From contig JAPEIS010000017.1 in NCBI GenBank assembly GCA_029531795.1, forward strand, positions 434,001-498,000: a DNA stretch of 64,000 nt. Reading direction: 5' to 3'. The notes under the pieces are model-generated. The model searched no databases and was not told the origin of the DNA. It was given only the letters and a program-made list of their open reading frames with translations. How positions within the stretch are numbered: the first letter of the stretch is position 1; each line of letters begins with the position of its first letter. This document shows, piece after piece, positions 17,917 through 64,000 of the stretch. A program made the translations under genes and the position numbers. The stretch comes from Sclerotinia nivalis (Eukaryota; Ascomycota; Leotiomycetes; Helotiales; Sclerotiniaceae).

Positions 17917-19990
17917 TCATTGGATTATCGTTGGCTTGTCCGTATCTTCCTTGCATACAGCATCTTCATCGGCTTTAATTTCGCCTACGATACTTCCTAC
18001 CCACTGCTGTTCGCCTACATGCGGAATGGTATTCGTGTTCGATCCATTTGCATGTTGCATGGTATCAATCGATAGTACCTTCGTCAAGATGTGAGAAAAT
18101 CTCCGTATTTCTGGCTTCTCGGCCACTTTCGCAAGTAAAAGGTTCGCATATTGTCTTTGAGAGTTTGGTGTTTGACTCAGTGTTCTCACGAACATATCAA
18201 ATGGATCTTGACAGATACCATATACTTCATGGGGAATTTGTGATCCATAAGCTTGCATAATATCTACCATCGAATTCCCGATCTCAAAAATCTTCTCGAA
18301 AATACCCATTCCATGTACTTCTATACTTGTGATGGGTAGTGAAGATACAGCGCTCAATAGAGAGTGTGCGATCTTTAGAGGATATCGGAAAGTCATGCTT
18401 TCGTCGGCTGCCACGGAAGAGAGGAGCCCTTGACGCATCGAAGATTGCCAAACGATTAGGCGCAGCCATTGTTGAGTAACGAGTATATCAGCTTTCTGTA
18501 TGGCAGTAAGGGACACGTGAGAAGAATGGGAAAGATTTAGTTGTTGTTGAAGGGCTGTGTACGTAAGTGTCGATATTGGTGCATCAGAAGCTTCATTCCA
18601 AGAATCGACGAAGTTAGAGTCTAGCAGATGGTAAGAATGTACTAGATGCATAAACCCAGAATGAATTTCTGGTGCTTCATAGTCGTGTAGTGTTGATGGT
18701 AGAGCTGGCGTTTTCGAGAGGGTAAGAGGTTTGTGGCGAAGAATGGCAAAAGACCTATGATCATGTTAGAACCTCACATTTTTGCATAAAACGAACTTAC
18801 CTTTCCGTGACATATAAGATCCAAAATGTACGTCTACGGCACAATTCTTCAGCTGGATGAAGACCGGAATATTTATACTCTTCATGTAACCCTATATCTT
18901 GGGCCATCGTCATTGCTTCCCTCAAATAATACCAGGATTTCCTAGACTGATTGAGCTCGAAGGATGCCGTTGATACAAAATATGAAGAAATAACAGCGGA
19001 CAATGATCTATCTTCCACGAAGTCATAACCCTGTCGAACCATGATACATTCGTCTAAGAAGAACCGTCCAGCTATTTCCCATGAAGGTGGCCCTGGAGCT
19101 AATATGTTTTTACCCGACATGTGTGTTGAAGTAATAGCACATAAAGAATAAATAAGGTTTTTCTCGTGCATCTCCAATGGTCGATTGATAGAATCTCTCA
19201 GAGTGGGCATATGCACTAATGGCATAATCGGGTATAAGTGCTCAAGAAAGAGGTCAAGGCATGTCGGGATTAGATACATGTAGCTGACACATGTTGGCCT
19301 AAATTGATCCGTCGTGAAGATTCCATTTGTCTCATCATTCGAAAGGGGTGAGATATCCGACATGATTGGATGCCAGGTTGGTCGTCCTATATATGTTTGT
19401 GCAGCGGCGGAGTTGACCGTATCCGAAATCCAATGATCAATATCAATTCTATATTACATCTCATTTAGTTAGTGGACAACAAAAGGCGGTGCAAAACGTG
19501 TGACTTAAATTCCTTATGTCATGGCTCGTGTGATAATACCTGAGGTTTGATCCATCTTCAGATATCCCTCTGATTCTGACGTTACTTGCGGTCGAGTTGG
19601 AACACTAAGGACTCTGACACCCCGCTGCAGGAAGAAATATCATTACTTACGAGCCGGGCCTGGAACTGCTCCCACCTGAGCCTGAGTCACGGGACTCTGC
19701 GAAGCTTTTGATAGCTCCGCCATCTTGAGCTCTCAATTCATTGATCACTCTACCACTTCCTCGCTTTGGTCCTCTCCTCTTCGGTATGTGCTCTCTCTTA
19801 CAAGTCAATGATGCATTTCCGCATTGCTTACACGGGAGATTCCCATCACATCGTATCCCTTAATTTGTCAATACTCGGAACTCATTTACAGCACCAGGAA
19901 CCGTTAGGTATATGTGAAAGACTCACTTCTCCGTCGACAATGATCGCAAACTTTTCTAGGTGTCGGTATCTTTATATCCTCTGGAGGCAT
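17917..19990 (-). CDS. Zn(II)2Cys6 transcription factor, sugar-regulator type
   Basis: Modelled as five exons on the minus strand: 19927-19990, 19651-19858, 19586-19624, 18801-19448 and 17917-18754, giving 598 aa in consistent phase. Splicing exons 1 and 2 builds a complete zinc cluster, VCDHCRRRRIRCDG then PCKQC and LTC, interrupted by an intron between Cys 2 and Cys 3. A basic linker (KRRGPKRGSGRV) follows, as in AmyR/maltose-type regulators. The C-terminal part carries the fungal-specific transcription factor domain (LEHLYPIMPLVHMPTL, then RRRTFWILYVTERSFAILRH). The product is expected to be a nuclear DNA-binding regulator; target genes are unknown and no sugar-use gene is adjacent. The 39-bp third exon is the weakest part of the model: it rests on one acceptor (CTGCAG) and a GTAACG donor chosen because they keep phase. 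Flanking exons are well supported. Confidence 0.85.
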
Positions 19991-49966: not shown

Positions 49967-52900
49967 CTAAGCATTTGCCAACAGCTCTGGTTTGGATGTG
50001 GCCGAACGAATGATTTCAGCCAAGGATGCGGCGTGCTCGCCATTCTAAAAAAAAAAAGAGAATGTCAATAGGATCTCACGTTTAGATTAGGAGGGTGTCT
50101 GATTACCATCATTGAAAAGTGATTTGCTCCTTCGACTACGTGAACCTCTACCTTGGTACCTGGGAAAAGAGAGGCCCAACCGCCGGCGCTAAAGTCAGTC
50201 CGTTGCTCGGTCAAAAACTTCATACCCTCTGTGTCATCAGCACTCAGTGGAAGCTTTCGATTTTTGACACCGTCAAGGGTGCATTGCCCTGCCCAAATGA
50301 TCGAGGTTCTGGGTGTGAGACCTAGTGGTAAAGGTTCGGCCCAGTATTCATGTAGCACATCGATAGTGGCATTAAAATGCGGAATCAGCCACTTTGGTGG
50401 TACGGGGACGGGACCGCCACCTGTTTTGATCTGTCCAAATATACCGATGGCACTACAATGATCGTAGAAGCGCTGGGGCAAGCTATCCATGCCCTTCGGC
50501 TCAGGAGAATCGATTATCACCAAATCTTCCACCCTTTGGCCCTCCGCAATTAACATTTGCGTAGCACGATATGCAAAAACACCGCCGGACGACCAACCGC
50601 CAAGGATGTACGGCCCATTCGGCTGTCGCTTTTTTATTTCTCTTAGAAAGCCAGTGACGAGCTCGTCGAATGAGCATTTCATTTCTTCTGGTTCACGCAT
50701 ATATGCGGATACGAGGGCAACAACCGTCAGGTCATCATTCACTCGCGGAATGTTGGCGTAGGAATACGCCGAGCCGGATCCGTCTGGAAATAAAAACAGT
50801 GACCGAGCATCAATGCTCGTGTGTGCCTTTTGGAGGACGACGGAACTGGGCTGGCGGATTTGTGATTTGTGCATCGTGCTTAGATCATCTGACGAGAGAA
50901 AAGGCTGTGGTGAAGTTTCTTGAGAGGATAATGGTGATGTTAGTTGTGTTCCCGTCATCCTTGGGGAATGAGCAGTTGAATGAGCATCACCAGTGGAAGA
51001 AGGACACGGGCTTTCCTTTTGAGGCAACAGTCCCATGGACTGTGCCAAGCCACTTTTCAACTCACCCACTGTAAAGAACTGGTCAAAAAGGGAGAATCCA
51101 GAACTCGTATCAAAGTCCACCTCTTCCCTGAGGCGACTTGTGATGATCAATGACAAAAGCGAGTCAACTCCAATTGTTACAAAGTCAGTTCCATCATTCA
51201 ACTCGTGAATATCGATACCAGTCTCCTCGGAGACGATTTCCATGATTTTGGCGTACTTTTCATGTAGAACCTTGTTCATCACATCTAATTTCGCCTCAAT
51301 TTGCGTGGGGATACTGTCTATGTAATTATTGGTGACTACAATGCCATTTGCAGAAGAGGGTGGCGTCAATGGCGTAGCCAGATCTATACCAGATGGCTCA
51401 AATCTGGGATATTTGGAAGTATCCTTTTGCGACTGTTGCCTACTTGCTGACAGTAGAATGCTATGCAAAAGCCGTTTAGGGACACCTTGAAGCTAAAGTC
51501 GAGCTTAGCATAATTTTGTTTCTCACGAATGGGGATTTCATTTGAAGAATGTTCCGGGCTTACCTGAATCTGTTCAAATCTTCCAACGGGACGGTTACCG
51601 TCAAGTATCGTTACATCGCCTTCCCAAATAGAACCTTGCGCCTTCACCATTTTGACATATGTCTGATAGACTTTGTGCGGAAGAAGCGGCTCAAAAAGTT
51701 GGAAAGAGCCCCAGCCGTGGTTGACAAATACTTCAGTGGTGGGATCTGAGTTGTCATTGGCGTTCATAACAAAGCCAGCGGATTGAGAAAACGCATCGAT
51801 ATAGGCGGGGTGTGTGTGAAAAATGGCACTGTCAGTATTGTTTACAGCATTTAGATCGACTTTGCTACCTGCTTCCATGGACGAGCTGTTCAGAACGATC
51901 TCACTCAATGCACGGTATGCTGCATCAAATTCGGCCAGTGTATCTACCATCCTATATATCATTGTTTTGTTAAATTTATAACATTGATCTGTAGCGAGGC
52001 CTGCTTCGAGTTGCTTAATTCGGGATTCGAATTCTACTCCATGATCTTCCAACCATTGAGGATCAGGACGAGAGGTGAATAAGATGTTACACTTGGCATG
52101 CAAGACAACAGTTTTTTTGTTTTTCTAGAGTTATTAGAGGTCAGTAACATATGAAAGATGAACATTAGAAATTATCTCACATCGACCGACGAAAATTGGC
52201 AACTGGCGCTCTTTTGATGCCAGTCAATGTCTACTGATGTACGAAGTAGCTGTGGCCCCTTCTCTTGAGCGATGAGCGCCTTCTCAACCACCATGTTTGC
52301 GATATCAATTTGTTGGTCTTCCATGACTGGTCGATACTTGTTAAGGAGATACCGGCCTATAGAAAGTCCAATGTCGGCGTACACGGACTGTTTTCTGTGT
52401 TAGGTTTGAAAGCTACAGGCCAAGGAGAATCTACAGATGAGCGAAATCTTACCGGTGTGCAAAGTGGAATGCCATTCACTTTGTGTCCTTGAACCAATGG
52501 ATGGAGATCAGAACGATGGATGTCAGACTCTACAATTATTGAACCAGACTGGTCTCCCATATCTTCGGAAATTACCTCGTGGATTGTCGTACTTAAAATT
52601 TTCAAGTGTTCATTCTGCACTGCTTGAAGCTCAGGAATCGGATCCCCCTTTCGAAGTGACCAATTGTTGACATACTGTATCCAGTAGTCTTTGAGATCCC
52701 ATTGATATGCCGGCAGGTCCATAACCTTCTGGCATGACGGGAAATTGCTATGGAATTCTTTCCACTGAATTTCGGCGCCTGCCAGATACAATGATGACAT
52801 TGTATCCGTCAGAGTTTTCCATGTTCCTATGTCACGCGCGAGTGACATTAAGACCGTTGAACGATTGCCAAGAATTGATTTCACCATTCGCGAAACTGTA

Positions 52901-55900
52901 GGATGGGGACCAATCTCAACGAAAGTTGTATTGTCTGCAATCGTACCGCCTGCAGTTGCAGCAAAGAGTGCTCCGACCAGATCAACAGGTTTGCGGCAAT
53001 GGTCCGTGAGGTGTTCCGGTCCAAAAACTCCGGGAAGACGAACCACAGTTGCTGAGAGGGGGCATATGACAGGAATATCTGGTGGGTGGAAGGCCACACC
53101 TCGGGCAGTTTGCTTGAATTCCTCTAGTATACTATTCATTTGAGAGGAGTGAAAAGCATAAGGGGTTTTGAGGATTGTCCCCATGATTTTTTGTGACATC
53201 AAAAGCTCAGACAGACTTTCGATATTTTCCCGAGTTCCACTAAGGACAATATCGCTTAGGCCATTGATACAAGCAATCTCAACTTCCTTGTCTTTCAAAA
53301 AGGGGGCGAGTGTATCGATCGAAGATTTGACAGCCAGCATCAGATGTGTATGAGGCAAGCAAGCTTTTTCGAGCTCTTGACCGCGCATACCGACTAGGTA
53401 GATTGTCTCCGCCGCCGAAAGAACCCCAGCAGCATTTAATGCAGCATAATGACCAAGACTATGGCCAACGACACAACTGGGGGTAACACCCCATGAGGCC
53501 CAGAGCCTCACTAACGCCATCTGCAAGCAAGTGATAGCCAGTTGCACTGCCGTTGGAGATTGATCGGATATCTGAGTTTTATCTCTATCCTCGCTGATAA
53601 CGGATATAATCGAAGGGAAGCCTTGTTTTTGTGCCAATTTATCGTAGAGACAAATATCAGCCCGAAAAGAGGAGATGCTTTCAAATAGCTCCTTCCCCAT
53701 TCCAATATAGCTAGACCCTTGCCCGGTGAATACGAAGGCAATCGAAGGGCTTGAAATGGATCTTGCTTTTCCAACCTCGGAATCTATCGCTTTGGACAGG
53801 TTGACCGCTATGTCTTCGATATTACATCCAGTTATGGCGATGCGATGGGGATGGTGAATACGTCTTGCAGTTGTGGTATAAGCAAGAGAAGACAGGGACA
53901 GGGGGGAACTAGGAGTACTCGTCAGGAATGACAACAGAGACTGGGCATTTGCTTTCAACGCCGAAGCCGTTTTAGCAGAGACGGCAACTAAATGTATGGC
54001 TCGAGTATCTTCCTGTGAGTCGGCTACTCTTTGAGGAGAATCTGCCAAAAGCAGGGCAGTGTTACCACCTGCAGCACTAAAATTATTTACCAGTACTTGA
54101 CGAGGACGGCCGTGGACTCTCTCCCACTTGATCGGCTTGTCCGTAATACGAACACCGCGAGAAAACAAATCCTCCGGGAATCTGTGATTTATCCTAGTCT
54201 TAATGCCGCAGTGAGGAGGTATTGTGTTATTGCGCATCATTAGTAAGACTTTGATAAGGCTCGTCACTCCTGCTGCAGCTTCGCCGTGACCCACATTTGC
54301 TTTGGCAGATCCAAGATAAAGAGGTTTGTCCTCAGGACGCTGACCAACTTTAGGTGCAAAGCACTCCAGAACGCTTGACATCTCAGCAAAGTCGCCAGTT
54401 TGTGTCCCGGTTCCACTAAATATCGAGTTAGCCTATTCCTTTCAGTAAGAATGGAAACATCTAGATTTGGACTTACTGCATCTCGACATAACTGACACCT
54501 TGGCGCTCTACACCGCTAAGAACCTTTTGGAACATATCTTTTTGTGCTCCCACATTTGGTCGAGTGATAGAATTTGATTCGGCTGAATGGTTAGTAGAAA
54601 TATTCAGTATTACGCCCTGAATTGGGTCATTGTCTGCCAACGCATCTTCAAGACGTTTCAAAATCACCGTAGCGACACCTTCCCCTCGACAATAGCCATC
54701 GGCCGAGTCATCGAATGTTCTGCAGTTTCCTGTACGTGATAAGAAGTGTCCTCTGTCAAGTCCACTCGTGAAATCTGGGTTTGTTATCACGTTGGTACCG
54801 CCGGCGATTGCAGTGTCGACGTCGCCCTGCCAGAGGGAGTTACATGCAATATGAATTGCTGCCAAGCTGGATGAGCATGCGGTGTCCACGCTATAACTCG
54901 GTCCACTGAATTTAAAGCAGTAGTTGATGCGACCTGGGATGAATGCGCGATTTCCTCCGGGGATAAAGTATGTGTCTATATCCTGCGCGCTATTTGTTTC
55001 CATCCAGTCGTTGCTTGTAACACCATAGAAAACCCCAACTCGGTCTCTTTTAGTCGAAGGCGTATTGTCAGGGACAACGCCTGCTTGCTCTAGTGCTTCA
55101 TAGGCTGTCATAAGAGCAAGACGCTGCGCGGGATCAACCTGCTGAGCTTCTCTCGGGGACATACTGAAAAATCTGGCATCAAACAACCCAGGCTCCTCAA
55201 GCCAACAACCGTAAGGTGTAACACTAGTGTTTTTCCTGGTGCCTGAACTGTCAACATGCGTCTTTTGATCCCATCGGAGTGGAGGTACGACCTCATGCAC
55301 ATCTAGGCCTTTGTAGAGAATATCCCAAAATTTTGCGGTGTCGTTTGCACTAGGAAATCTGCCTGACATACCAATAATGGCAATCTTGGACCTTGGCGAA
55401 TTTCCAGCGACGCTTGAATATGTCTCGTGTTTTTCGGCATCAAATTGATCATGATTTGCAGGCCCAAGTGGATGGCCTGCTATTTCAATGTTTGTGTTCC
55501 CCTTCATCTTCAACACCGCCTTGAGACCAAGGCAAGCATCCGTGGAAATTGGAATCAACAAGGTTTTAGTGTCTTTTGAAGATTGCAAAATGGAACTTAG
55601 AGTATTTGCCAGCAAATCCCACTGCATAGGTCTCAGAAAGATGTCTATAAGGGCATTTTGTAGCAATTCTCTCAGAGTGCGGGTACGAATGACCTCTCCC
55701 GTCGCTATTGATAGAACTGGAATGCTTCTGGGTGTCTCGGGCCAGCAACATACTGGATCTAGATCTAAGATACTTTCGACATCTTGCTGTGTATAGAGAT
55801 GTGGTGCATGATAAGGGGCATTCACACACAACTCAATACCTTTATAGGTACTTACATCTTGATGTTTTCGGAAGGCACTCAGTAGCCTGGGCGGGCCACT

Positions 55901-56643
55901 GATTGTGACACCACGGCTCGAACTGCTACTGACGTATGGTCGTGAGATCAGAGGAATACACTGCAATTTCGGTCAGTAAGAATCTGTTCTACGAATGTAT
56001 TTTCAAGCATACATGAGATTCTGAGAAGTCTTTGATAACAGAAGTTGCCTTCTCTATCGATAACCCCGGGTAAATTACTGCCCATGAAGCCCCGGTCTTG
56101 TCGTTTAATGCCACTTGTGTCCCGATTTCTGCAGCCAACACACCAGCGCGAAATGAGATGATGACAGTCTGTACTGCTACTGGTACAAGCTCGGAGAGCG
56201 ACCGGCTATAACTGACCGCAGCTGCAGCAAGCGTGCCGGTGCATATCCCTGCTAAATAAGAGTCTGATAGCTGTGGGTAACGCCCAGTTTTATGGCACAA
56301 TCTATATAGAAATTAGCGGCTGTTTCACTATCAATTTCGATCTATCTAGTATATATGAATCGTACCGGATGAAGAGACTAATTTGATAGATAACAGTAAG
56401 GGCGTGGTCTAGAGGAACGCTTTTGAAGCCATCTTCTCGTAAAGCTAACAGGTCTAGTAAGCCTGCAAATTTGATGGATACTCTGGGTTTTAACGCCTGA
56501 ATTTCAGAACGAATCGCTTCATATGCTTTAGTTAAGAATGAATCCTGGATAGGATCACGATCAGAACAGATGATGGTTCTTAGTCCTTCATCAACCTTTT
56601 GTGATTGGTCTCCGAAGATATAGAGTTCGATACCTCGATCCAT
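49967..56643 (-). CDS. Non-reducing polyketide synthase (SAT-KS-AT-PT-ACP-TE)
   Basis: Eight exons on the minus strand: 56366-56643, 56013-56301, 54477-55960, 52453-54415, 52181-52387, 51564-52124, 50107-51492 and 49967-50044. All phases agree, giving 2081 aa. SAT: Cys in GICTGT (about C113). KS: DTACSSS (about C551), His in VEMHGTGTQTGD (rebuilt by a splice) and in KANVGHGEAAAG. AT: GHSLGHYAALNAAG (Ser near 1003). PT: His in HPLVQGHKVNG (about 1323) and Asp in YIDAFSQSAGFVMN (about 1515). One ACP: GVDSLLSL (Ser near 1706). TE: GWSSGG (about 1895) and His in GANHFSMM; exon 8 adds the final 26 residues. There is no methyltransferase or reductive release domain. The enzyme should make an unmethylated aromatic polyketide released by the thioesterase. 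All catalytic residues appear intact. The flavoenzymes to the right are the likely tailoring steps. Confidence 0.95.
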
Positions 56644-57005
56644 GGCTACTAAGTTAGTTTATTTTGTAGTAGTTTGCAAAGGTAAGAGTTTTGATAAGGA
56701 GTGAGTTTGAAAGTTTCATGTTTTTAATACAATACATGAATAGTTGGACTATATCTCAATGTATCAAAGTTCTGTTACGCGATTGTTCATGGCAATATTA
56801 GTACTCTATATAGTGCATCTAAGGCAAGTGAGGGTACGCACACGAAGGCAAAAAGATCATAGGTTGGAATCAATATCAAAGTGGGTCGAACCTCATGCGA
56901 AGTAAGCTTGCGTTATTATTGGTAAGTGATTAATAGAGCTCCTAGGCCATTCTCAAAAATCCCAACATCACCATAAAAAACGACACCCAAGCTTCAAGTC
57001 ACTTC
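56644..57005. promoter_or_regulatory. PKS upstream region
   Basis: 362 bp between the PKS start and the end of the next minus-strand gene; it must hold the PKS promoter. It is AT-rich, and I see no clear regulator site. Confidence 0.4.
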
Positions 57006-57428
57006 TCATTCTGATTTCCCTTCCTTATTGAGCCTTGCATTCTCCAAAGCTGTCCCAACAGCAACCATGCTCAACAGAACAGCAGAAATGTACGCCTGCG
57101 GGAATCCATCGCCAAACTCGGGATCTATAGGTAGCGACCCCGGGTAAAATGCCGCGCTAACTTGTGCAACCCAGTTCAGACTCGTCAGTAATGCAGCTGT
57201 GTAGAGCGATTCTTTCTCAATGACACGTGAGGTACTTGGGCGATAGAGGTAATAAAGAGCGCCAATGCCGAGAAGCACACCCGTTGACAATGTTTGCCCG
57301 TTGTGGAACTTGGCGTGCGGCGGCCAGCGTGGGTTGTAGACATGGGTGTCATTCCAGTCAGCGATAAAACCACCGATACCATTTATAACGGCAACGATAG
57401 CCAGGATGGAGCGTCCCAATTTGGGCAT
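57006..57428 (-). CDS. Small cluster-associated membrane protein (DUF6640-like)
   Basis: Single exon, 140 aa, directly upstream of the PKS on the same strand. Four hydrophobic segments are visible: ILAIVAVINGIGGFIADW, TGVLLGIGALYYLYR, YTAALLTSLNWVAQVSAAF and AYISAVLLSMVAVGTAL. A conserved-looking hydrophilic motif, NPRWPPHAKFHNGQ, follows the first segment and contains two His plus Trp and Asn that could form a polar site. I associate this pattern with an uncharacterised fungal family of small four-helix membrane proteins (I believe DUF6640) found near secondary-metabolism genes; the name is from memory and unsure. No catalytic role is established. It may share regulation with the PKS. Start: the ATG at 57428, the first in frame. 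Confidence 0.72.
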   Translation of the reverse strand: MPKLGRSILAIVAVINGIGGFIADWNDTHVYNPRWPPHAKFHNGQTLSTGVLLGIGALYYLYRPSTSRVIEKESLYTAALLTSLNWVAQVSAAFYPGSLPIDPEFGDGFPQAYISAVLLSMVAVGTALENARLNKEGKSE

Positions 57429-58508
57429 TTTGACTGCAAGCTCTGGCTTGTGATTCGGGCAGTTTGGGGAGTTGTGGTTGAAGATAAAAGTTGAGGTGCG
57501 GAGCTTGGTTAACCATTTATGAATGAAAGTGAAGACAAAGTTACAGGTATTATACTACCTAGCTGCATAAATTGTGATGTGTTGGCTTACTGCCCCTTTG
57601 ATAACATAACCGGGACTCTCATTGGGTCGTTCGGCAATGAAGTAAGGCGGATACATATGCGGGTGAGTCCGGTGAAGTCCGTCTTAAGCGAACTGGAGGG
57701 GAGCGATTGGAGTGGCGGAAAAAATTACGATCTAAACTTATCCGGGTACTTGGATCTTTTTCCTATTCTAGCTGACTCAAAAACGTTACCAAAGTTAGTA
57801 AAATGTCACGGTTTATATCGTAATTCATTATATAGTTAATAATGTGTCACGAGGGTTTATTTTCAATTAATAACATTCGAAATTAATTATTTAAACTCTA
57901 AATATTATACTATTCAGAGTTTCTGATTGGTTAGTATATTAAAAATAATGAAATATCGTGATTGGTGATTGATTTGATTGAAATATTGCGATCGAGGTTC
58001 TAAAGGCACTATAATTCAGTTGTTGGGGGCCTAAGTAGTAGCCTATAAAATGGCCCGGTACGAGAAAAAGAAAAAAGTTCTAAATCTTCGATTCTGATAA
58101 GGGGTGATATGATATGAATGGCTATTGGATAATACTTAATTGGGTATAGTTTCAAAGGTTTTTTGGCCATTTAAATCGCTCCCAACCGGAGAGCGACCGG
58201 AGGGCTCAGTATACTTCCCTCAAATAATCTTTGCATCGATCTCCACTGTTTTGTGATGCAGTGTAGAAGGCGAGAACTTGATATATATGGAGAGCACTGG
58301 AAGAGATTTGGGGTTGTGGCATAGAGGTTTGAGATTGTGGCATTTAAGTTTGTTTAACTTGTTCAGGATTTGATACTCCATTCCATTGCATTAACTTATC
58401 CCACATTGTTTCCTGATTTTACAGATATGAATGTAAAATTGCAGCGCGCTGCTCCCGAAGTTCCAATTTTGATTGAGATCCTCTAGAGACTATATTGTAT
58501 GTGAGAAA
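57429..58508. promoter_or_regulatory. Bidirectional promoter in the PKS cluster
   Basis: 1.1 kb between divergent cluster genes. It is AT-rich (57840-58050) with a GC-rich island at about 58185-58215 containing CCGGAGAGCGACCGGAGG, two CCGGAG half-sites 10 bp apart, which could suit a zinc-cluster regulator. The ORF at 57519-57839 (+) has no recognised domain and is probably not a gene. Confidence 0.4.
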
Positions 58509-60327
58509 ATGGCCAGCGGCAGCAACAGCAAAGGACTACCAGTTGTGATTATAGGAGCCGGAATTTCAGGTGACCTTATAACAGAACATTCGTTAACGGG
58601 GGCTGACCGATAATACCCAGGCATATGTATGGCAGTTGATCTAATACGTCGTAATGGAACTCGAAACTTCATAATACTTGAAAAGTCAAGCGATGCTGGA
58701 GGTACCTGGAATGACAATCGTTATCCTGGATGTTGCGCTGATGGTGAGTTCACACCTCAAATGCCAATAGCGTCATCATTCATTGTATTCTAAAATTTCA
58801 ACAGCGTGGAGCCATCTATATTCATTTTCATTCAATCCGAATCCAAATTGGATGTGCAATTACCCCACACAAAGAGAGATCCACGCGTATCTGATTAGCA
58901 CAGTTCGGCAATGGGATCTTTTCAAGCACATAGTTTTCAATACTGCTGTTGAAAGTGCGAAATGGAGTGATACCGAGATGGTATGGCGGATTGTAGTTAC
59001 GTCTACAAGCAATGATAAGAAAGAGGAGTGCCATCAGGACACGATCATCACTCCTTTTCTCGTCTCAGCCGTGGGACAGCTCAGCATACCATCCATCCCC
59101 GATATAGCTGGGCTTGACGATTTCAAAGCAAAGGTCATGCATTCTTCAAGATGGGACGAGAGTCAGGAACTTAAAGGCAAAAGAATTGCAATCTTTGGGA
59201 ACGGAGCAACAGGCATTCAAATGATTCCAGAGATTGCAAAACTCGCATCGCACCTTACAGTCTTCCAGCGTACACCAAACTGGGTCTTACCTAGAAACAA
59301 CCAGAACATCTCCCTCGCTCAAAGGTTAATATATAAATTCTTTCCGCATATCCGCGAGCGCTATCGAGAAAGATTAATGGTTTCTCAAGACCAGGTACAT
59401 GATATGATTATCAAGCCAGAAGTTGGCGAGTTTGTGAAAAGTTTAAGCCTGGATATGATGAAACGTCAAATCCCGGAAAATGGAATTTTGCGCGAAAAAC
59501 TGACACCTAACTATCCCTATGGATGCAAAAGGGTCATCTTGAGCGACGAATTCTTTCCCACCATGAATCAACCACATGTTAAATTGGAGACTAGGCCAGT
59601 GGATCACATTACTGAAAGAGGCATCCTCATCGACGGCGAAGAAACTGATTTCGATATCTTGATTCTAGCCACAGGATTCCGCACAACAGAATTTATGCAT
59701 GGCATCAATATCGTAGGCAATGATGGGCGAGATATCAGAGAGATCTGGCGTCAAGGTGGTCGCGCCTACCTTGGAATGACAGTGGAATCCCTTCCGAACT
59801 TTGCCATGCTTTACGGGCCCAACACAAACCTTAGCCATTCTTCCGTACTTCTAATGATCGAGTCACAGGCTCGGTATATCAGCGCCATGATCGGAACTAT
59901 TCAGTCTGCCGTATCAAGTGCTGAAAATCTCGTCTTTACAGTGAAAAAGGAGAGAGTGGAAGCTTTCAATCAGGAGCTGCAGCTACGACTTCACGAGACT
60001 GTTTTTGCACACCCGGGCTGTAGCAGCTGGTACAAAACGAAAGACAACATTGTCACTAATAACTGGCCTGAAAGGGCAGCGAAATATCAGCAGATGCTGA
60101 TGGTTTTGGATTGGAACGATTATGAAATTTTGGGAACTTGGCCTAAGGGTTGCTCAAAGACAGATATTAAACATTTTGGACTTCCAATTGAGGAGGAACT
60201 GAAAACTCGATTCCCAACCAGATATATCCTTGGAATATTAGGCATTTCTAGTCTTTGTATGGCTATTTGGAGGTATAGACGCTGGGCAAAAGTTCTTAAT
60301 GGGCAAAGAACCGGAATCATCGAATAA
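58509..60327 (+). CDS. Baeyer-Villiger-type flavin monooxygenase
   Basis: Three exons, 58509-58569, 58621-58743 and 58805-60327, with introns of 51 and 61 bp, giving 568 aa. The first Rossmann motif GAGISG (residues 16-21) is rebuilt across intron 1, and GGTWNDNRYPGCCAD across intron 2. A second dinucleotide site GNGATG (about 193) binds NADPH. The BVMO-type fingerprint is FKAKVMHSSRWDES (about 167-180), with Ala in place of the usual Gly at the third position. LILATGFRTTEF is the later FAD motif. The C-terminal hydrophobic stretch (YILGILGISSLCMAIW) followed by RYRRW suggests a membrane tail. In fungal polyketide pathways such enzymes insert oxygen next to a ketone or hydroxylate; which it does here is open. 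It is divergent from the PKS side and probably co-regulated. Confidence 0.9.
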
Positions 60328-61349
60328 CTCTATAGTAAAGTTTATCAAACACTCTGAATCTGAACTTGCAGACCTCATTTTGGTATCTTACCACGAGAAA
60401 AAAAATCCATTATAAAAACAGATAAACTCGAATGACCAAAGACCTCCATTGCGACTGGTAGCACTTGGAATTGCTTTTCGCACCAGTAGTCTCGGTGGTG
60501 CTAACGATAACCTCAGCTGATAATCATTCGGATGTGGCCCAAAATCGCTGGAACCCTCCGTGGCCTCCCCTCAATCTCCAACATTAGTAAAAGGATCCGG
60601 TTGGCTGCATAACTGCGCCACCGGCTAATTATTCGTTTAGCGAAAGCAACCAAATGGCATGCTGACTGCAGTAGCAGCCCCAGTTTTAACCAACTGAAAT
60701 CAAAAAAATTTAATGGTGAGTAGCTGACTGCATGAATGCAGCAAAGTGGATATTTTGCATACTTTATAAAACAAATCTTGTAGCGGGGTTTGTTAATCTC
60801 ATTCCCAGTCTCTCGAGTCTCGATGTTGTCCTTGATGTATTGTCTACGTAAGCCCCATTTAGCCTAATTCGTTCTGCTGATATTGGGTCAATTCCAATCC
60901 AACCGGGTTATACGAAACTATACTCTATATTGCAAGAGAGATGGCAATTAGGATTAAAAGTGCATCTAGCTATCGGTTACGTAGCTCTGCTAAAATCATA
61001 CCCCATCACTGATCGGGGGTCTTTCCGTTATCCTCGGTAGCACAAAAGACTTTGATATATGTTCTTATGTATGTACTATCTAGAAAGTAGCTTGGAACTA
61101 AACCCTTTCTTTGTACCTATCTAGAAGTTAGTAAGTGGAGATTTTGTCTGATCTATTATCCGATCCCTGATCCATTTTTCTGAAATTATCTTCTTTGGGA
61201 ATTTCGTTGGTCTCTTCTACATAGTAGAAAGAGCTTTCTTGAGAATATATGATCGCACCTGTTTAGATACCTAGATCTTATTGATTTGCAGCATACTGTC
61301 TACAGTGACATATCAGATTAAACCTTGGCTAGTTCGACTTCCCCTCATT
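60328..61349. other. Spacer between two cluster monooxygenases
   Basis: 1.0 kb; holds the 3' end of the BVMO gene and the promoter of the next gene. It contains GC-rich patches around 60530-60640 and an imperfect pair GCTGACTGCAGTAGCAG / GCTGACTGCATGAATGC at about 60660 and 60724. The palindrome AACCGGGTT lies near 60901. No gene is seen. Confidence 0.4.
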
Positions 61350-62561
61350 ATGTCAGCGCCTCGAGTTTTGATTATTGGTGCTGGAGTAGGCGGTTTGGCG
61401 CTTGCACAAGGCCTTAAGCGGAGTCAAATTGACGTTGCCGTCTTCGAACGTGATACACTACTAGATTCTCGGCTTCAGGGTTACCGACTCAAGATTTTTG
61501 GCGAATTTCAAAAGAAATTACGGGATCTCCTGTCTGATGAAGCATGGCCAGAGTTCGAGGCTTCTTGTGCAGAAACTAACCTCGGCGAAACAACATTGAA
61601 CGCACCGGATGCGCATATCATTGCGAGTCGTAAAGGCCACCTCCCTGATGGAGTACCTCTGCCGTATACGATTGACCGTGGAATGCTGCGCCAGTCAATG
61701 ATGAGAGGAATTGAAGATTCGGTGCATTTCGGAAAGCGGTTCGTTAGGTATGAGCTCAACGACACAGGCATCCGCGTTTTCTTTGAAGATGGTAGCGTTG
61801 AGGAAGGTACATTGCTCGTGGGTGCTGATGGAGCTCGTTCGGCGGTCCGTCGGCAATTGCTTCCAGAAATCAAACTTCTTGATACTGAGGGATGCTGCAT
61901 CTATGGTAAGACATTTCTGAGGCCAGAGTTTCTCTCACGATTTCCAGAGAAACATCGAAGATGGATGACGGTGGTACTTGATCAGACCCCAGTTTTACAG
62001 ACGATCATCTCCGGCGAAGCACCCGTTACGCTTGTCTGTGAGCAAGTTCGCTTCCTGAATCGAAGCGAAAATAACGCTTTGCCAGAAGACTACATACACT
62101 GGGGATTGCTTTTCCAAAATACTACATTTGGGTTAAAGGGGGAGGCGCTGGAAAATTCATTGCGAACTGAAGCATTTAAAATGTCGCTACGATTGACAAG
62201 TGAATGGGATCCTTCTATCCGAAGTTTGCTGGAGCTTCAAGACCCTTCTCTGACGATGGGAATGCGAGTATTCTCCTCCAGTCCGAATTTGCCGAGCTGG
62301 ACGCCTTCCTCGAAAGTCACTATAATTGGAGATGCAATACATGTTATGTCGCCAGCAGGAGGGGTCGGTGCTGTGGCGACGCTGCATGATGCCGCCACTC
62401 TGGCGCGAATAATTAGCGAAGATGGAATCTCGCAGACATCCATTGGCATATTTGAAGAAGAAATGAGAAAATTTGCAAGTATTTGTCTTAAGAGGAGCTT
62501 CGTGGCAGGGGAAAAGCTTATAAAAACGCCCTTGGCTGAGAATTGTAAGACAGTAGTTTAG
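61350..62561 (+). CDS. FAD-dependent aromatic monooxygenase (PHBH / salicylate hydroxylase type)
   Basis: Single exon, 403 aa from the ATG at 61350 (MSAPRVLIIGAGVGGLALA). An in-frame ATG at 61281 would add 23 residues before the FAD motif and is less likely. The FAD-binding GAGVGG is at residues 10-15. The DG motif is VGADGARSAVRR, and the GD motif is IIGDAIHVMSPAGGVGA. These are the three signatures of class A flavoprotein monooxygenases, which hydroxylate or dearomatise phenols with NAD(P)H and O2. No membrane anchor is evident. It is in the same direction as the neighbouring flavoenzymes and a likely tailoring enzyme for the PKS product. Substrate and position are unknown. Confidence 0.92.
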   Translation: MSAPRVLIIGAGVGGLALAQGLKRSQIDVAVFERDTLLDSRLQGYRLKIFGEFQKKLRDLLSDEAWPEFEASCAETNLGETTLNAPDAHIIASRKGHLPDGVPLPYTIDRGMLRQSMMRGIEDSVHFGKRFVRYELNDTGIRVFFEDGSVEEGTLLVGADGARSAVRRQLLPEIKLLDTEGCCIYGKTFLRPEFLSRFPEKHRRWMTVVLDQTPVLQTIISGEAPVTLVCEQVRFLNRSENNALPEDYIHWGLLFQNTTFGLKGEALENSLRTEAFKMSLRLTSEWDPSIRSLLELQDPSLTMGMRVFSSSPNLPSWTPSSKVTIIGDAIHVMSPAGGVGAVATLHDAATLARIISEDGISQTSIGIFEEEMRKFASICLKRSFVAGEKLIKTPLAENCKTVV

Positions 62562-62970
62562 TAAGCCTGTGTAGCTTGGGTCTCTCATATATTCACACAA
62601 ATCCCAATAGAAAACGTCATTTAATGCAAACGGAGTATTTAGACGGGCAACAAACAATAGTAGCTAACCAATAAGAGCTGATTTGATATTGAACAACTAT
62701 AAGCTCAAAACTAACGTCGTATTTATCTTTTTATCCGTGCCGTTCTTGCCCAAATGTCGGTATTTGCGGCACAGATTAGTTCGTTGTTAGGCTTAGTTCG
62801 TGGGGACGCAGGAATAAATACATGTGGTGTATATTAATAGATCCCACGCGAAGTAAGAAGGATCGCAATGTCCCTGTTCCCGGATACACTGAAAGTGTAT
62901 ATATACTAATCTCTCAGTACCCGGGTATCTATCACAATACCATTCACCACTTGCTTCTTCATCTTCAATC
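62562..62970. promoter_or_regulatory. Promoter of the BBE-type oxidase gene
   Basis: 409 bp. A TATA-like TGTATATATACTA lies about 70 bp before the ATG. A perfect 10-bp palindrome, TACCCGGGTA (62918-62927), follows; CGG-type palindromes are typical zinc-cluster sites, though no binding is shown. Confidence 0.4.
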
Positions 62971-64000
62971 ATGGGCCCATCAATTTGGAAAGTTCTTATT
63001 GCCAGCATAATTTTTAGTCTTTTTACCGATGTATCGACAGCCGCTGTCAATATCTCCGGCCTTAAACCCCTACTCTCATCTCTAGCAACGATTGTCAACA
63101 ATACTTCTGGAGCCCCACGGTGGAGTGACTTTGATGCCCCGACTCCTGGCGCCGTGGTCAACGTAGCCACCGAAAATGATGTGTTAGTTACTGTAAGCTT
63201 ACCGATGATTCACAAGAATTTCTAGAAACACACGCTTACTAGAACCCCTTCATAGGTCCGATACTGCATAGCTGAGAACATACCATTTCTTGCCCAGAAT
63301 GGTGGCCACGGCTGGTCTACGACGCTTGATTTATATCAAAACGGCATACTCATAAACTTGGCCGGCATCAAAGCTATCTCTTTCAACTCCGCCAAAACGC
63401 AAATCACATTTCAAGGCGGTGCCTTGATATCAGATGTGGTCGACGCCTCGTTTAAAAACAGTGTTCTAGTCCCGACAGGTACTTGTAACTGCGTTGGCAC
63501 GATTGGAGCTGTCCTGGGCGGAGGCTTTGGCAACTTAATAGGTATCTATGGTTTTGGAGTTGATAATCTAATCTCCATGAACGTTGTTACGCCTTCCGGA
63601 ACCGCAATCACTGTATCCCCAACGAGCAACACGGACCTATGGTGGGCTATGCGTGGCGCCGGTCCTAATTTTGGAATTGTTACATCAGCAGTTATGAAAT
63701 CGTACCCTGTCGCTTCCAGTCTGCTAAACGCATGGACAGGCCCTTTGATTTTCACTGGTGCTCAACTCGAGGCTCTCATAGAAGCACTGAGCCAGCTGGA
63801 TTTACAATCAGAGATGAGCATAGCAATGTTCTTCCTGATGTCTGACAACTCGCCTATCATATTGGTGACAGTATTCTACTACGGTACAGAAGCGGCTGGA
63901 AAAGCAGCGTTTGCTCCACTCTATTCCGTCGGGCCCATTGTGGACGGAACAGCTATTTTACCCTATAACGAATGGAATTCTGGCGGTGATTCTTTCTGTG
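62971..64000 (+). CDS. Secreted BBE-type FAD-linked oxidase (3' end outside window)
   Basis: Exon 1 is 62971-63192, intron 63193-63255 (GTAAGC, ATAG) and exon 2 runs from 63256 past the window end; 322 residues are visible. A signal peptide covers about residues 1-25 (KVLIASIIFSLFTDVSTAA). The FAD-binding domain includes QNGGHGW, whose His (about 92) is the usual covalent FAD ligand. GTCNCVGTIGAVLGGGFG follows, with Cys about 151 aligned to the second covalent Cys of bicovalent enzymes. LWWAMRGAGPNFGIVTSAVM is the family signature. Such enzymes use bulky phenols or alcohols, making oxidative rings or couplings and reducing O2. With a secretion signal it may act in the secretory path, in vesicles or outside the cell. 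Nothing can be said about the missing C-terminal substrate and BBE domains. Confidence 0.93.

What the first reader, a model, noticed from the sequence alone, without database searches (positions are those of the whole stretch)
49967..64000. Candidate undescribed aromatic polyketide cluster: NR-PKS with three different flavoenzymes
An intact SAT-KS-AT-PT-ACP-TE synthase sits with a small membrane protein, a BVMO-type monooxygenase, a PHBH-type monooxygenase and a secreted BBE-type oxidase, all within 14 kb and all apparently functional. There is no methyltransferase domain and no reductive release, so the core product should be an unmethylated, hydrolytically released or cyclised aromatic acid or lactone, then oxidised up to three times. 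I cannot match this gene set to a named metabolite. No pathway regulator or transporter is in the window; they may lie beyond 64 kb.
Basis: partly seen in the sequence, partly recalled or inferred. Interest (0 to 1): 0.85.

Follow-up and report, generated by a model that had tools for sequence, protein, structure and literature searches.

The report
Sclerotinia SsPKS4-type aromatic polyketide cluster
This is a real fungal gene cluster for an oxidised aromatic compound, the counterpart of one already catalogued in the white-mould fungus Sclerotinia sclerotiorum; its product is unknown, and it carries a little-studied membrane protein that recurs beside this kind of synthase.

Summary
The genes are real, but the cluster is not undescribed. 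The genome is close to Sclerotinia/Stromatinia. The window's small membrane gene matches sscle_05g048030 of S. sclerotiorum (94%), next in number to SsPKS4, and PKS, UAP1 and nox1 stand in the same order in both. SsPKS4 is in print as an orphan NR-PKS, induced early in infection, guessed to make sclerotinin.

The cluster runs past 64 kb: an O-methyltransferase and a secreted oxidase close to patulin synthase follow, so 'unmethylated' does not hold. The PKS has one ACP and no C-methyltransferase, and sits in a fully supported 11-row single-ACP clade near melanin, naphthopyrone and perylenequinone synthases. Sclerotinin is less likely: another NR-PKS, on contig C5, ends in a C-methyltransferase and has an FSH1 hydrolase beside it, resembling the pair that makes anhydrosclerotinin B.

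Best reading: an orphan pathway to an O-methylated, oxidised naphthopyrone or naphthoquinone (inferred). Least known part: DUF6640, adjacent to the PKS in three genomes and on same-length contigs in three more, a predicted four-helix bundle with 13 invariant residues, beside redox genes in bacteria. The window's BVMO departs from its fingerprint, so 'all functional' is unproven.

The parts
49967..56643 (-). non-reducing polyketide synthase, SAT-KS-AT-PT-ACP-TE, 8 exons (56366-56643, 56013-56301, 54477-55960, 52453-54415, 52181-52387, 51564-52124, 50107-51492, 49967-50044), 2081 aa
   Evidence: Pfam domains exon by exon; spliced model without internal stops; 91, 79 and 70% identical full-length homologues; one ACP
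57006..57428 (-). DUF6640 (PF20345) small membrane protein, 140 aa, same strand and just upstream of the PKS
   Evidence: Pfam 2.6e-34; 94% identical to sscle_05g048030, next number to SsPKS4; joined to the PKS in the S. borealis annotation; four-helix model, mean pLDDT 95.2
58509..60327 (+). Baeyer-Villiger-type flavin monooxygenase, 3 exons (58509-58569, 58621-58743, 58805-60327), 568 aa, C-terminal hydrophobic segment
   Evidence: FMO-like 1.9e-19; BVMO structures are the best PDB matches; 92% to S. trifoliorum, 77% to S. borealis; fingerprint residue 170 deviates
61350..62561 (+). FAD-dependent aromatic monooxygenase (FAD_binding_3), 403 aa, one exon
   Evidence: Pfam 1.8e-13; PDB matches are FAD-dependent monooxygenases and hydroxylases; model
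62971..64000 (+). secreted BBE-type oxidase (exons 62971-63192, 63256-64325, 64406 to ~64535; the last part lies outside the window), 473 aa
   Evidence: FAD_binding_4 9.4e-19; best PDB matches EncM and 6-hydroxy-D-nicotine oxidase; model. Outside the window follow the O-methyltransferase (65607-67097 +, contig C17:499607-501097) and the GMC oxidase (67723-69927 -, C17:501723-503927)

Best explanation
The window carries the Sclerotiniaceae SsPKS4 cluster, compactly arranged: PKS and DUF6640 on the minus strand; BVMO, FAD monooxygenase, secreted BBE oxidase and O-methyltransferase on the plus strand; then a secreted GMC oxidase on the minus strand (~50-70 kb on the window scale). Shown: gene content, intact PKS frame and active-site motifs, conserved neighbours of the SsPKS4 locus, membership of a single-ACP clade. 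Inferred: the PKS makes an unreduced, not C-methylated chain, folded C2-C7 by the PT domain and released by the TE as a naphthopyrone, naphthalene or nor-toralactone-like compound; the O-methyltransferase caps a phenol; the FAD monooxygenase and BVMO hydroxylate it and oxidise it to a quinone or open a ring; the secreted BBE and patulin-synthase-like GMC oxidases finish it outside the cytosol. DUF6640 is inferred to be a membrane protein that handles a quinone or phenol intermediate. Use in early infection is inferred from expression of the S. sclerotiorum gene.
For: Locus: DUF6640 is 94% identical to sscle_05g048030, the next number after SsPKS4 = sscle_05g048020. In S. sclerotiorum PKS4, UAP1 and nox1 are SS1G_05681, SS1G_05671 and SS1G_05661; here PKS, a UAP1-like gene (~82.0-83.5 kb, recognised by eye) and a NADPH-oxidase-type gene (~105.7-106.6 kb, FAD_binding_8 and NAD_binding_6) follow in that order. 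S. borealis holds PKS+DUF6640 and its BVMO on contigs of the same length, 501,624. Class: in a 123-row and a 35-row KS-AT-PT tree the PKS falls in one clade of 11 single-ACP rows, support 1.0 and 100/100; the 120 listed hits include Alb1-, fusarubin-, elcA- and ctb1-named synthases. Tailoring: Pfam and PDB matches. Expression of SsPKS4: up 3.4-fold at 6 h and 2.5-fold at 12 h on Brassica napus, at 3, 6 and 12 h in a reanalysis, at all times on soybean.
Against: I know of no product for any row of the 11-row clade, and its sister is not resolved (CTB1/ElcA-named rows join at 0.76; no starred branch places the clade), so chain length and cyclisation are not fixed. Tailoring functions are by family only. 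Whether the GMC oxidase, the second BBE (~75-77 kb) and genes up to ~80 kb belong is untested. I did not see the SsPKS4 protein itself, so orthology rests on neighbours. The BVMO fingerprint deviates in this genome. No regulator, transporter or laccase was recognised next to the cluster.
Confidence: 0.6

Rival explanations
1. The cluster makes sclerotinin A/B and then sclerin, as Graham-Taylor et al. 2020 suggested for SsPKS4 or SsPKS17. Methyl groups would be added by a separate enzyme, and the BVMO would open the ring.
For: Suggested in print. SclA of Malbranchea, assigned to sclerin by gene inactivation, is reported to lack a methyltransferase domain. The sclerin pathway is proposed to include a ring cleavage, which a BVMO could do.
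Against: The PKS has no CMeT domain by Pfam; the only methyltransferase recognised nearby is a PF00891 O-methyltransferase. Its best hits are melanin/naphthopyrone/perylenequinone-named synthases. SclA has two ACPs, this PKS has one. Another NR-PKS on C5 ends in a CMeT domain with an FSH1 hydrolase next to it, resembling AsbPKS+AsbTE, which give anhydrosclerotinin B.
Confidence: 0.12
2. It is a bikaverin-type pathway: single-ACP PKS, FAD monooxygenase and O-methyltransferase, with extra oxidases.
For: Recalled, from no call: Bik1 has one ACP and the cluster holds a FAD monooxygenase (Bik2) and an O-methyltransferase (Bik3). The same three types are here. Bikaverin synthases are placed in the multicyclic C2-C7 group.
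Against: No name with bikaverin among the 120 listed hits as shown; the clade's named members are not Fusarium. Bik1 itself was not in the tree. BVMO, BBE, GMC and DUF6640 are extra.
Confidence: 0.08
3. It is a perylenequinone-like (cercosporin/elsinochrome) pathway: nor-toralactone is O-methylated, ring-opened and dimerised.
For: ctb1/elcA-named rows were the nearest sister in the large tree; OMT, FMO and BBE types recur in those pathways.
Against: Sister support only 0.76 and no starred branch for it in the second tree. One ACP here, while P0087 and P0101 are not among the single-ACP rows; OMT and FMO are separate genes, not a CTB3-type fusion; no multicopper oxidase on contig C17 among 8 scored matches in the genome (a lower bound); no fasciclin recognised by eye.
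Confidence: 0.1
4. The cluster is partly decayed in this genome and no longer makes the full product.
For: BVMO fingerprint glycine replaced, kept in 120 of 120 listed homologues; an SDR-like gene at ~71.0-71.9 kb has an interrupted frame.
Against: PKS, FMO, BBE, OMT and GMC frames are open over ~20 kb. The SDR may not belong to the cluster.
Confidence: 0.1

Closest known systems
SsPKS4 cluster of Sclerotinia sclerotiorum (sscle_05g048020 / SS1G_05681)
   Same: next-number DUF6640 gene 94% identical; same order of PKS, UAP1 and nox1; NR type I PKS; induced early in infection
   Different: I could not read the sequences of SsPKS4 or of the other S. sclerotiorum cluster genes; the published product guess (sclerotinin) is not favoured by the domain content here
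Sclerotinia borealis PksA locus
   Same: 79% identical PKS, with DUF6640 joined to it in the annotation; BVMO 77% on a contig of the same length
   Different: other cluster genes not examined; no product known to me
CTB1 (cercosporin) and ElcA (elsinochrome) synthases and pathways
   Same: same broad NR-PKS group; OMT, flavin monooxygenase and BBE oxidase types recur
   Different: elcA- and ctb1-named rows are not single-ACP; di-domain CTB3/ElcB there, separate OMT and FMO here; laccase not found here; BVMO and GMC extra here
asb cluster of Aspergillus novofumigatus (anhydrosclerotinin B)
   Same: nothing in the window; it resembles the C5 PKS of the same genome, which ends in a CMeT and has a separate hydrolase
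   Different: the window PKS has a TE domain and no CMeT
Patulin synthase (PatE)
   Same: the GMC oxidase beyond the window matches it over 576 residues with 655.7 bits; the next structure has 213.4
   Different: patulin starts from 6-methylsalicylate (recalled), not from an NR-PKS product

Membership tests
SsPKS4 cluster (orthology) | PKS next to the DUF6640 gene sscle_05g048030 | tested here: met
   94% identical DUF6640, 0.36 kb from the PKS here; neighbouring numbers in S. sclerotiorum
SsPKS4 cluster (orthology) | PKS, UAP1 and nox1 in this order | tested here: met
   SS1G_05681, 05671, 05661 against ~50-57, ~82-83.5 and ~106 kb here; the UAP1 gene here was named by eye
SsPKS4 cluster (orthology) | reciprocal best match of the PKS protein to SsPKS4 | not tested
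   no S. sclerotiorum PKS was listed by name
multicyclic C2-C7 NR-PKS (naphthopyrone, melanin, perylenequinone group) | SAT-KS-AT-PT-ACP-TE, no CMeT, no reductive domain | tested here: met
multicyclic C2-C7 NR-PKS (naphthopyrone, melanin, perylenequinone group) | KS-AT-PT groups with alb1-, elcA-, ctb1-named rows to the exclusion of a CMeT NR-PKS | tested here: inconclusive
   grouping seen, but the hit rows were picked as best matches and the single CMeT row has a very long branch
multicyclic C2-C7 NR-PKS (naphthopyrone, melanin, perylenequinone group) | product is a C2-C7 cyclised multicyclic compound | not testable with these tools
   needs expression and structure determination
DHN-melanin synthase (PKS12/PKS13 type) | tandem ACPs, as in the presumed melanin synthases of this genome on C7 and C8 | tested here: not met
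   one ACP here; two PP-binding stretches on C7 and on C8
perylenequinone pathway (CTB/Elc) | bifunctional OMT-FMO protein | tested here: not met
   separate FMO and OMT genes
perylenequinone pathway (CTB/Elc) | laccase working with the BBE oxidase | tested here: inconclusive
   none on C17 among 8 matches scored genome-wide, a lower bound
sclerotinin/sclerin pathway | C-methylating activity, in cis or in trans | tested here: inconclusive
   no CMeT in the PKS; only an O-methyltransferase recognised nearby; SclA precedent without MT domain
bikaverin pathway | orthology to Bik1 | not tested
   no Bik1 sequence at hand
BVMO | FxGxxxHxxxW(D/P) fingerprint (motif recalled) | tested here: not met
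   one position differs in the window copy and is kept in 120 of 120 listed homologues; overall similarity to BVMOs is strong

The most novel reading that the evidence does not exclude
DUF6640 is a small membrane enzyme or shuttle, unnamed in the papers searched, and the dedicated partner of a single-ACP NR-PKS lineage spread over several classes of Ascomycota: it accepts the phenol or quinone released by the synthase in the membrane, using its invariant Asp/His/Trp/Gln residues, and the cluster exports an oxidised naphthoquinone or lactone of a new type that Sclerotinia makes in the first hours of infection.
Probability: 0.2. Interest if true: 0.62.

Novelty: new member of a known kind. Interest (0 to 1): 0.42.

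Why it matters
SsPKS4 is one of four NR-PKSs reported for an important crop pathogen and one of two named candidates for its sclerotinins. The comparison here separates the candidates: the synthase on C5 fits sclerotinin, the one in the window does not fit well. That makes the assignment testable with two gene deletions. The recurring DUF6640-PKS pairing gives a first functional lead for a family whose name appears in no paper of the library searched.

Full report
What is there. The window is C17:434001-498000 of a 50.3-Mb, 31-contig genome. The PKS at 49967-56643 (-) has eight exons and 2081 residues without internal stop. Pfam finds SAT, KS, AT, PT, one ACP and TE. Motifs read directly: SAT GICTG, KS DTACSSS, AT GHSLG, ACP GVDSL, TE GWSSGG, PT HPLVQGHKVNG.

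Beyond the window edge. The next 59 kb were fetched. The BBE gene ends at ~64535 on the window scale. An O-methyltransferase (65607-67097, PF00891 3.8e-24, 422 aa) and a GMC oxidase (67723-69927 on the minus strand, 616 aa) follow. The GMC oxidase matches patulin synthase with 655.7 bits over 576 residues; the next structure has 213.4 bits. Both it and the BBE protein begin with signal-like segments (read by eye). Further out lie an SDR-like remnant with an interrupted frame, a membrane protein, a second BBE-like gene, a quinone-oxidoreductase-like gene (PF13602 on one piece, below cut-off), then a uracil-DNA-glycosylase-family gene and a UAP1-like gene. I take ~50-70 kb as the likely cluster; the right border is not proven.

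Which organism and which cluster. The DUF6640 protein is 96% identical to one of Stromatinia cepivora and 94% to sscle_05g048030 of S. sclerotiorum 1980. The BVMO is 92% identical to one of Sclerotinia trifoliorum. The PKS is 91% identical to an unnamed sequence, 79% to S. borealis PksA, 70% to Lachnellula suecica, then 51%. In S. sclerotiorum, sscle_05g048020 is SsPKS4, next in number to that DUF6640 gene; SS1G_05681 is PKS4, SS1G_05671 is UAP1, SS1G_05661 is nox1. The same three anchors stand in the same order here, the last with FAD_binding_8 and NAD_binding_6 domains, the UAP1-like gene named by eye. I take this as the SsPKS4 locus; the SsPKS4 protein itself was not compared.

What is in print. 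SsPKS4 was listed in 2011 among S. sclerotiorum genes not shared with B. cinerea. It is induced on Brassica napus at 6 and 12 h, or 3, 6 and 12 h in a reanalysis, and on soybean at all times. Graham-Taylor et al. 2020 count four NR-PKSs and name SsPKS17 and SsPKS4 as candidates for sclerotinin A/B; their table marks the two NR-PKS clusters 05_7 and 05_8 as up-regulated and co-expressed. They state that in Leotiomycetes SsPKS4 occurs only in S. sclerotiorum and S. borealis; the hits here add Lachnellula suecica. Four papers in the library name SsPKS4 or SS1G_05681; the passages I read report no mutant of it.

Which kind of synthase. One ACP is found in the window PKS and in 15 of the 120 listed homologues. 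In a tree of 123 rows and 1244 columns, the window PKS lies in an 11-row clade of single-ACP synthases with support 1.0; in a 35-row IQ-TREE the same clade has 100/100. Besides the window and one unnamed row it holds Sclerotinia borealis, Lachnellula, Melanomma, Phaeosphaeria, Byssothecium, Apiospora, Coniella, Diaporthe and 'Penicillium occitanis'. ctb1/elcA-named rows come next in the first tree with support 0.76 only, and the deeper branching is not resolved in the second. Five of the 15 single-ACP hits lie elsewhere in the tree, so the trait is not unique to the clade (at least 3 changes forced). I know of no product for a clade member.

Less likely sclerotinin. On contig C5 (~2.54 Mb) of the same genome a second NR-PKS (SAT, KS, AT and ACP matched; PT not matched by Pfam) ends just after a C-methyltransferase (PF18558 1.8e-27, PF08242 4.2e-16), and an FSH1 serine hydrolase (2.3e-26) lies beside it. 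AsbPKS, SAT-KS-AT-PT-ACP-MT without release domain, expressed together with the esterase AsbTE, gives anhydrosclerotinin B. The C5 pair resembles this. Against a clean rule, SclA of Malbranchea is reported to make sclerin without an MT domain and with two ACPs, so the missing CMeT in the window PKS is evidence, not proof. Whether the C5 synthase is SsPKS17 was not tested.

DUF6640. No paper in the library uses the name. In 93 aligned sequences 13 columns are invariant: D24, H29, N32, W35, H38, A39, H42, G44, T46, P96, D102, P103, Q111. The predicted model has four long helices, mean pLDDT 95.2. The S. borealis annotation fuses it to the PKS. Among the 120 PKS and 120 DUF6640 rows, three pairs share the exact longest-contig length, each pair of one species (Melanomma pulvis-pyrius, 23.5 kb; Byssothecium circinans, 494 kb; Phaeosphaeria sp., 1.04 Mb), and all three PKSs are in the 11-row clade. 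Same contig is not adjacency: only the Melanomma contig is short. So the pairing is seen in the window and in 4 of the 10 other clade rows; Lachnellula suecica has both genes on contigs of different length, and for the other five rows no DUF6640 partner was matched among the 120 listed of 290. In bacteria the gene lies near redox genes more often at 0-2 kb than at 2-4 kb: 15 of 30 loci against 5 of 30; Pfam confirms representatives of the SDR, HxlR, zinc-binding-dehydrogenase and OYE kinds. A role with quinones or phenols is my inference.

Caution on function. The BVMO has Ala at fingerprint position 170, where 120 of 120 listed homologues have Gly. Whether it is active is open. The published co-expression concerns S. 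sclerotiorum, not this strain.

Verdict. Real, intact-looking, conserved in close relatives, already catalogued at the level of its synthase, product unknown. New here: the fuller gene set, the reasons against the sclerotinin assignment, and the DUF6640 pairing.

Noticed in passing
G000 contig C5, ~2.5408-2.5488 Mb (locus L030): NR-PKS (SAT, KS, AT, ACP matched) that ends in a CMeT domain with no release domain found, with an FSH1 serine hydrolase beside it and a fungal transcription factor and an MFS gene in the flanks: the better sclerotinin/sclerin candidate of this genome.
   Followed up: partly
L037-L104 (bacterial genome contigs): DUF6640 also occurs in several bacterial phyla, often close to SDR, HxlR, quinone-oxidoreductase-like or OYE genes.
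   Followed up: partly
58509-60327: The BVMO fingerprint of the window copy has Ala where all 120 listed homologues have Gly.
   Followed up: partly
window scale ~71.0-71.9 kb (L009:8000-8900): SDR-like gene remnant on the plus strand with an interrupted reading frame, between the GMC oxidase and a membrane protein.
   Followed up: no
window scale ~75.1-76.95 kb (L010): A second BBE-like oxidase gene with apparent introns, recognised by eye; its middle exon alone scored no Pfam family.
   Followed up: no
18797-19453: Fungal_trans-domain transcription factor piece on the minus strand, ~30 kb left of the PKS, with an importin-11-like and a phosphoribosyltransferase gene in between.
   Followed up: no
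G000 contig C11:887283-887738 (L036): Second DUF6640 gene of the genome; no PKS was recognised by eye among the ORFs of the 20 kb around it.
   Followed up: no
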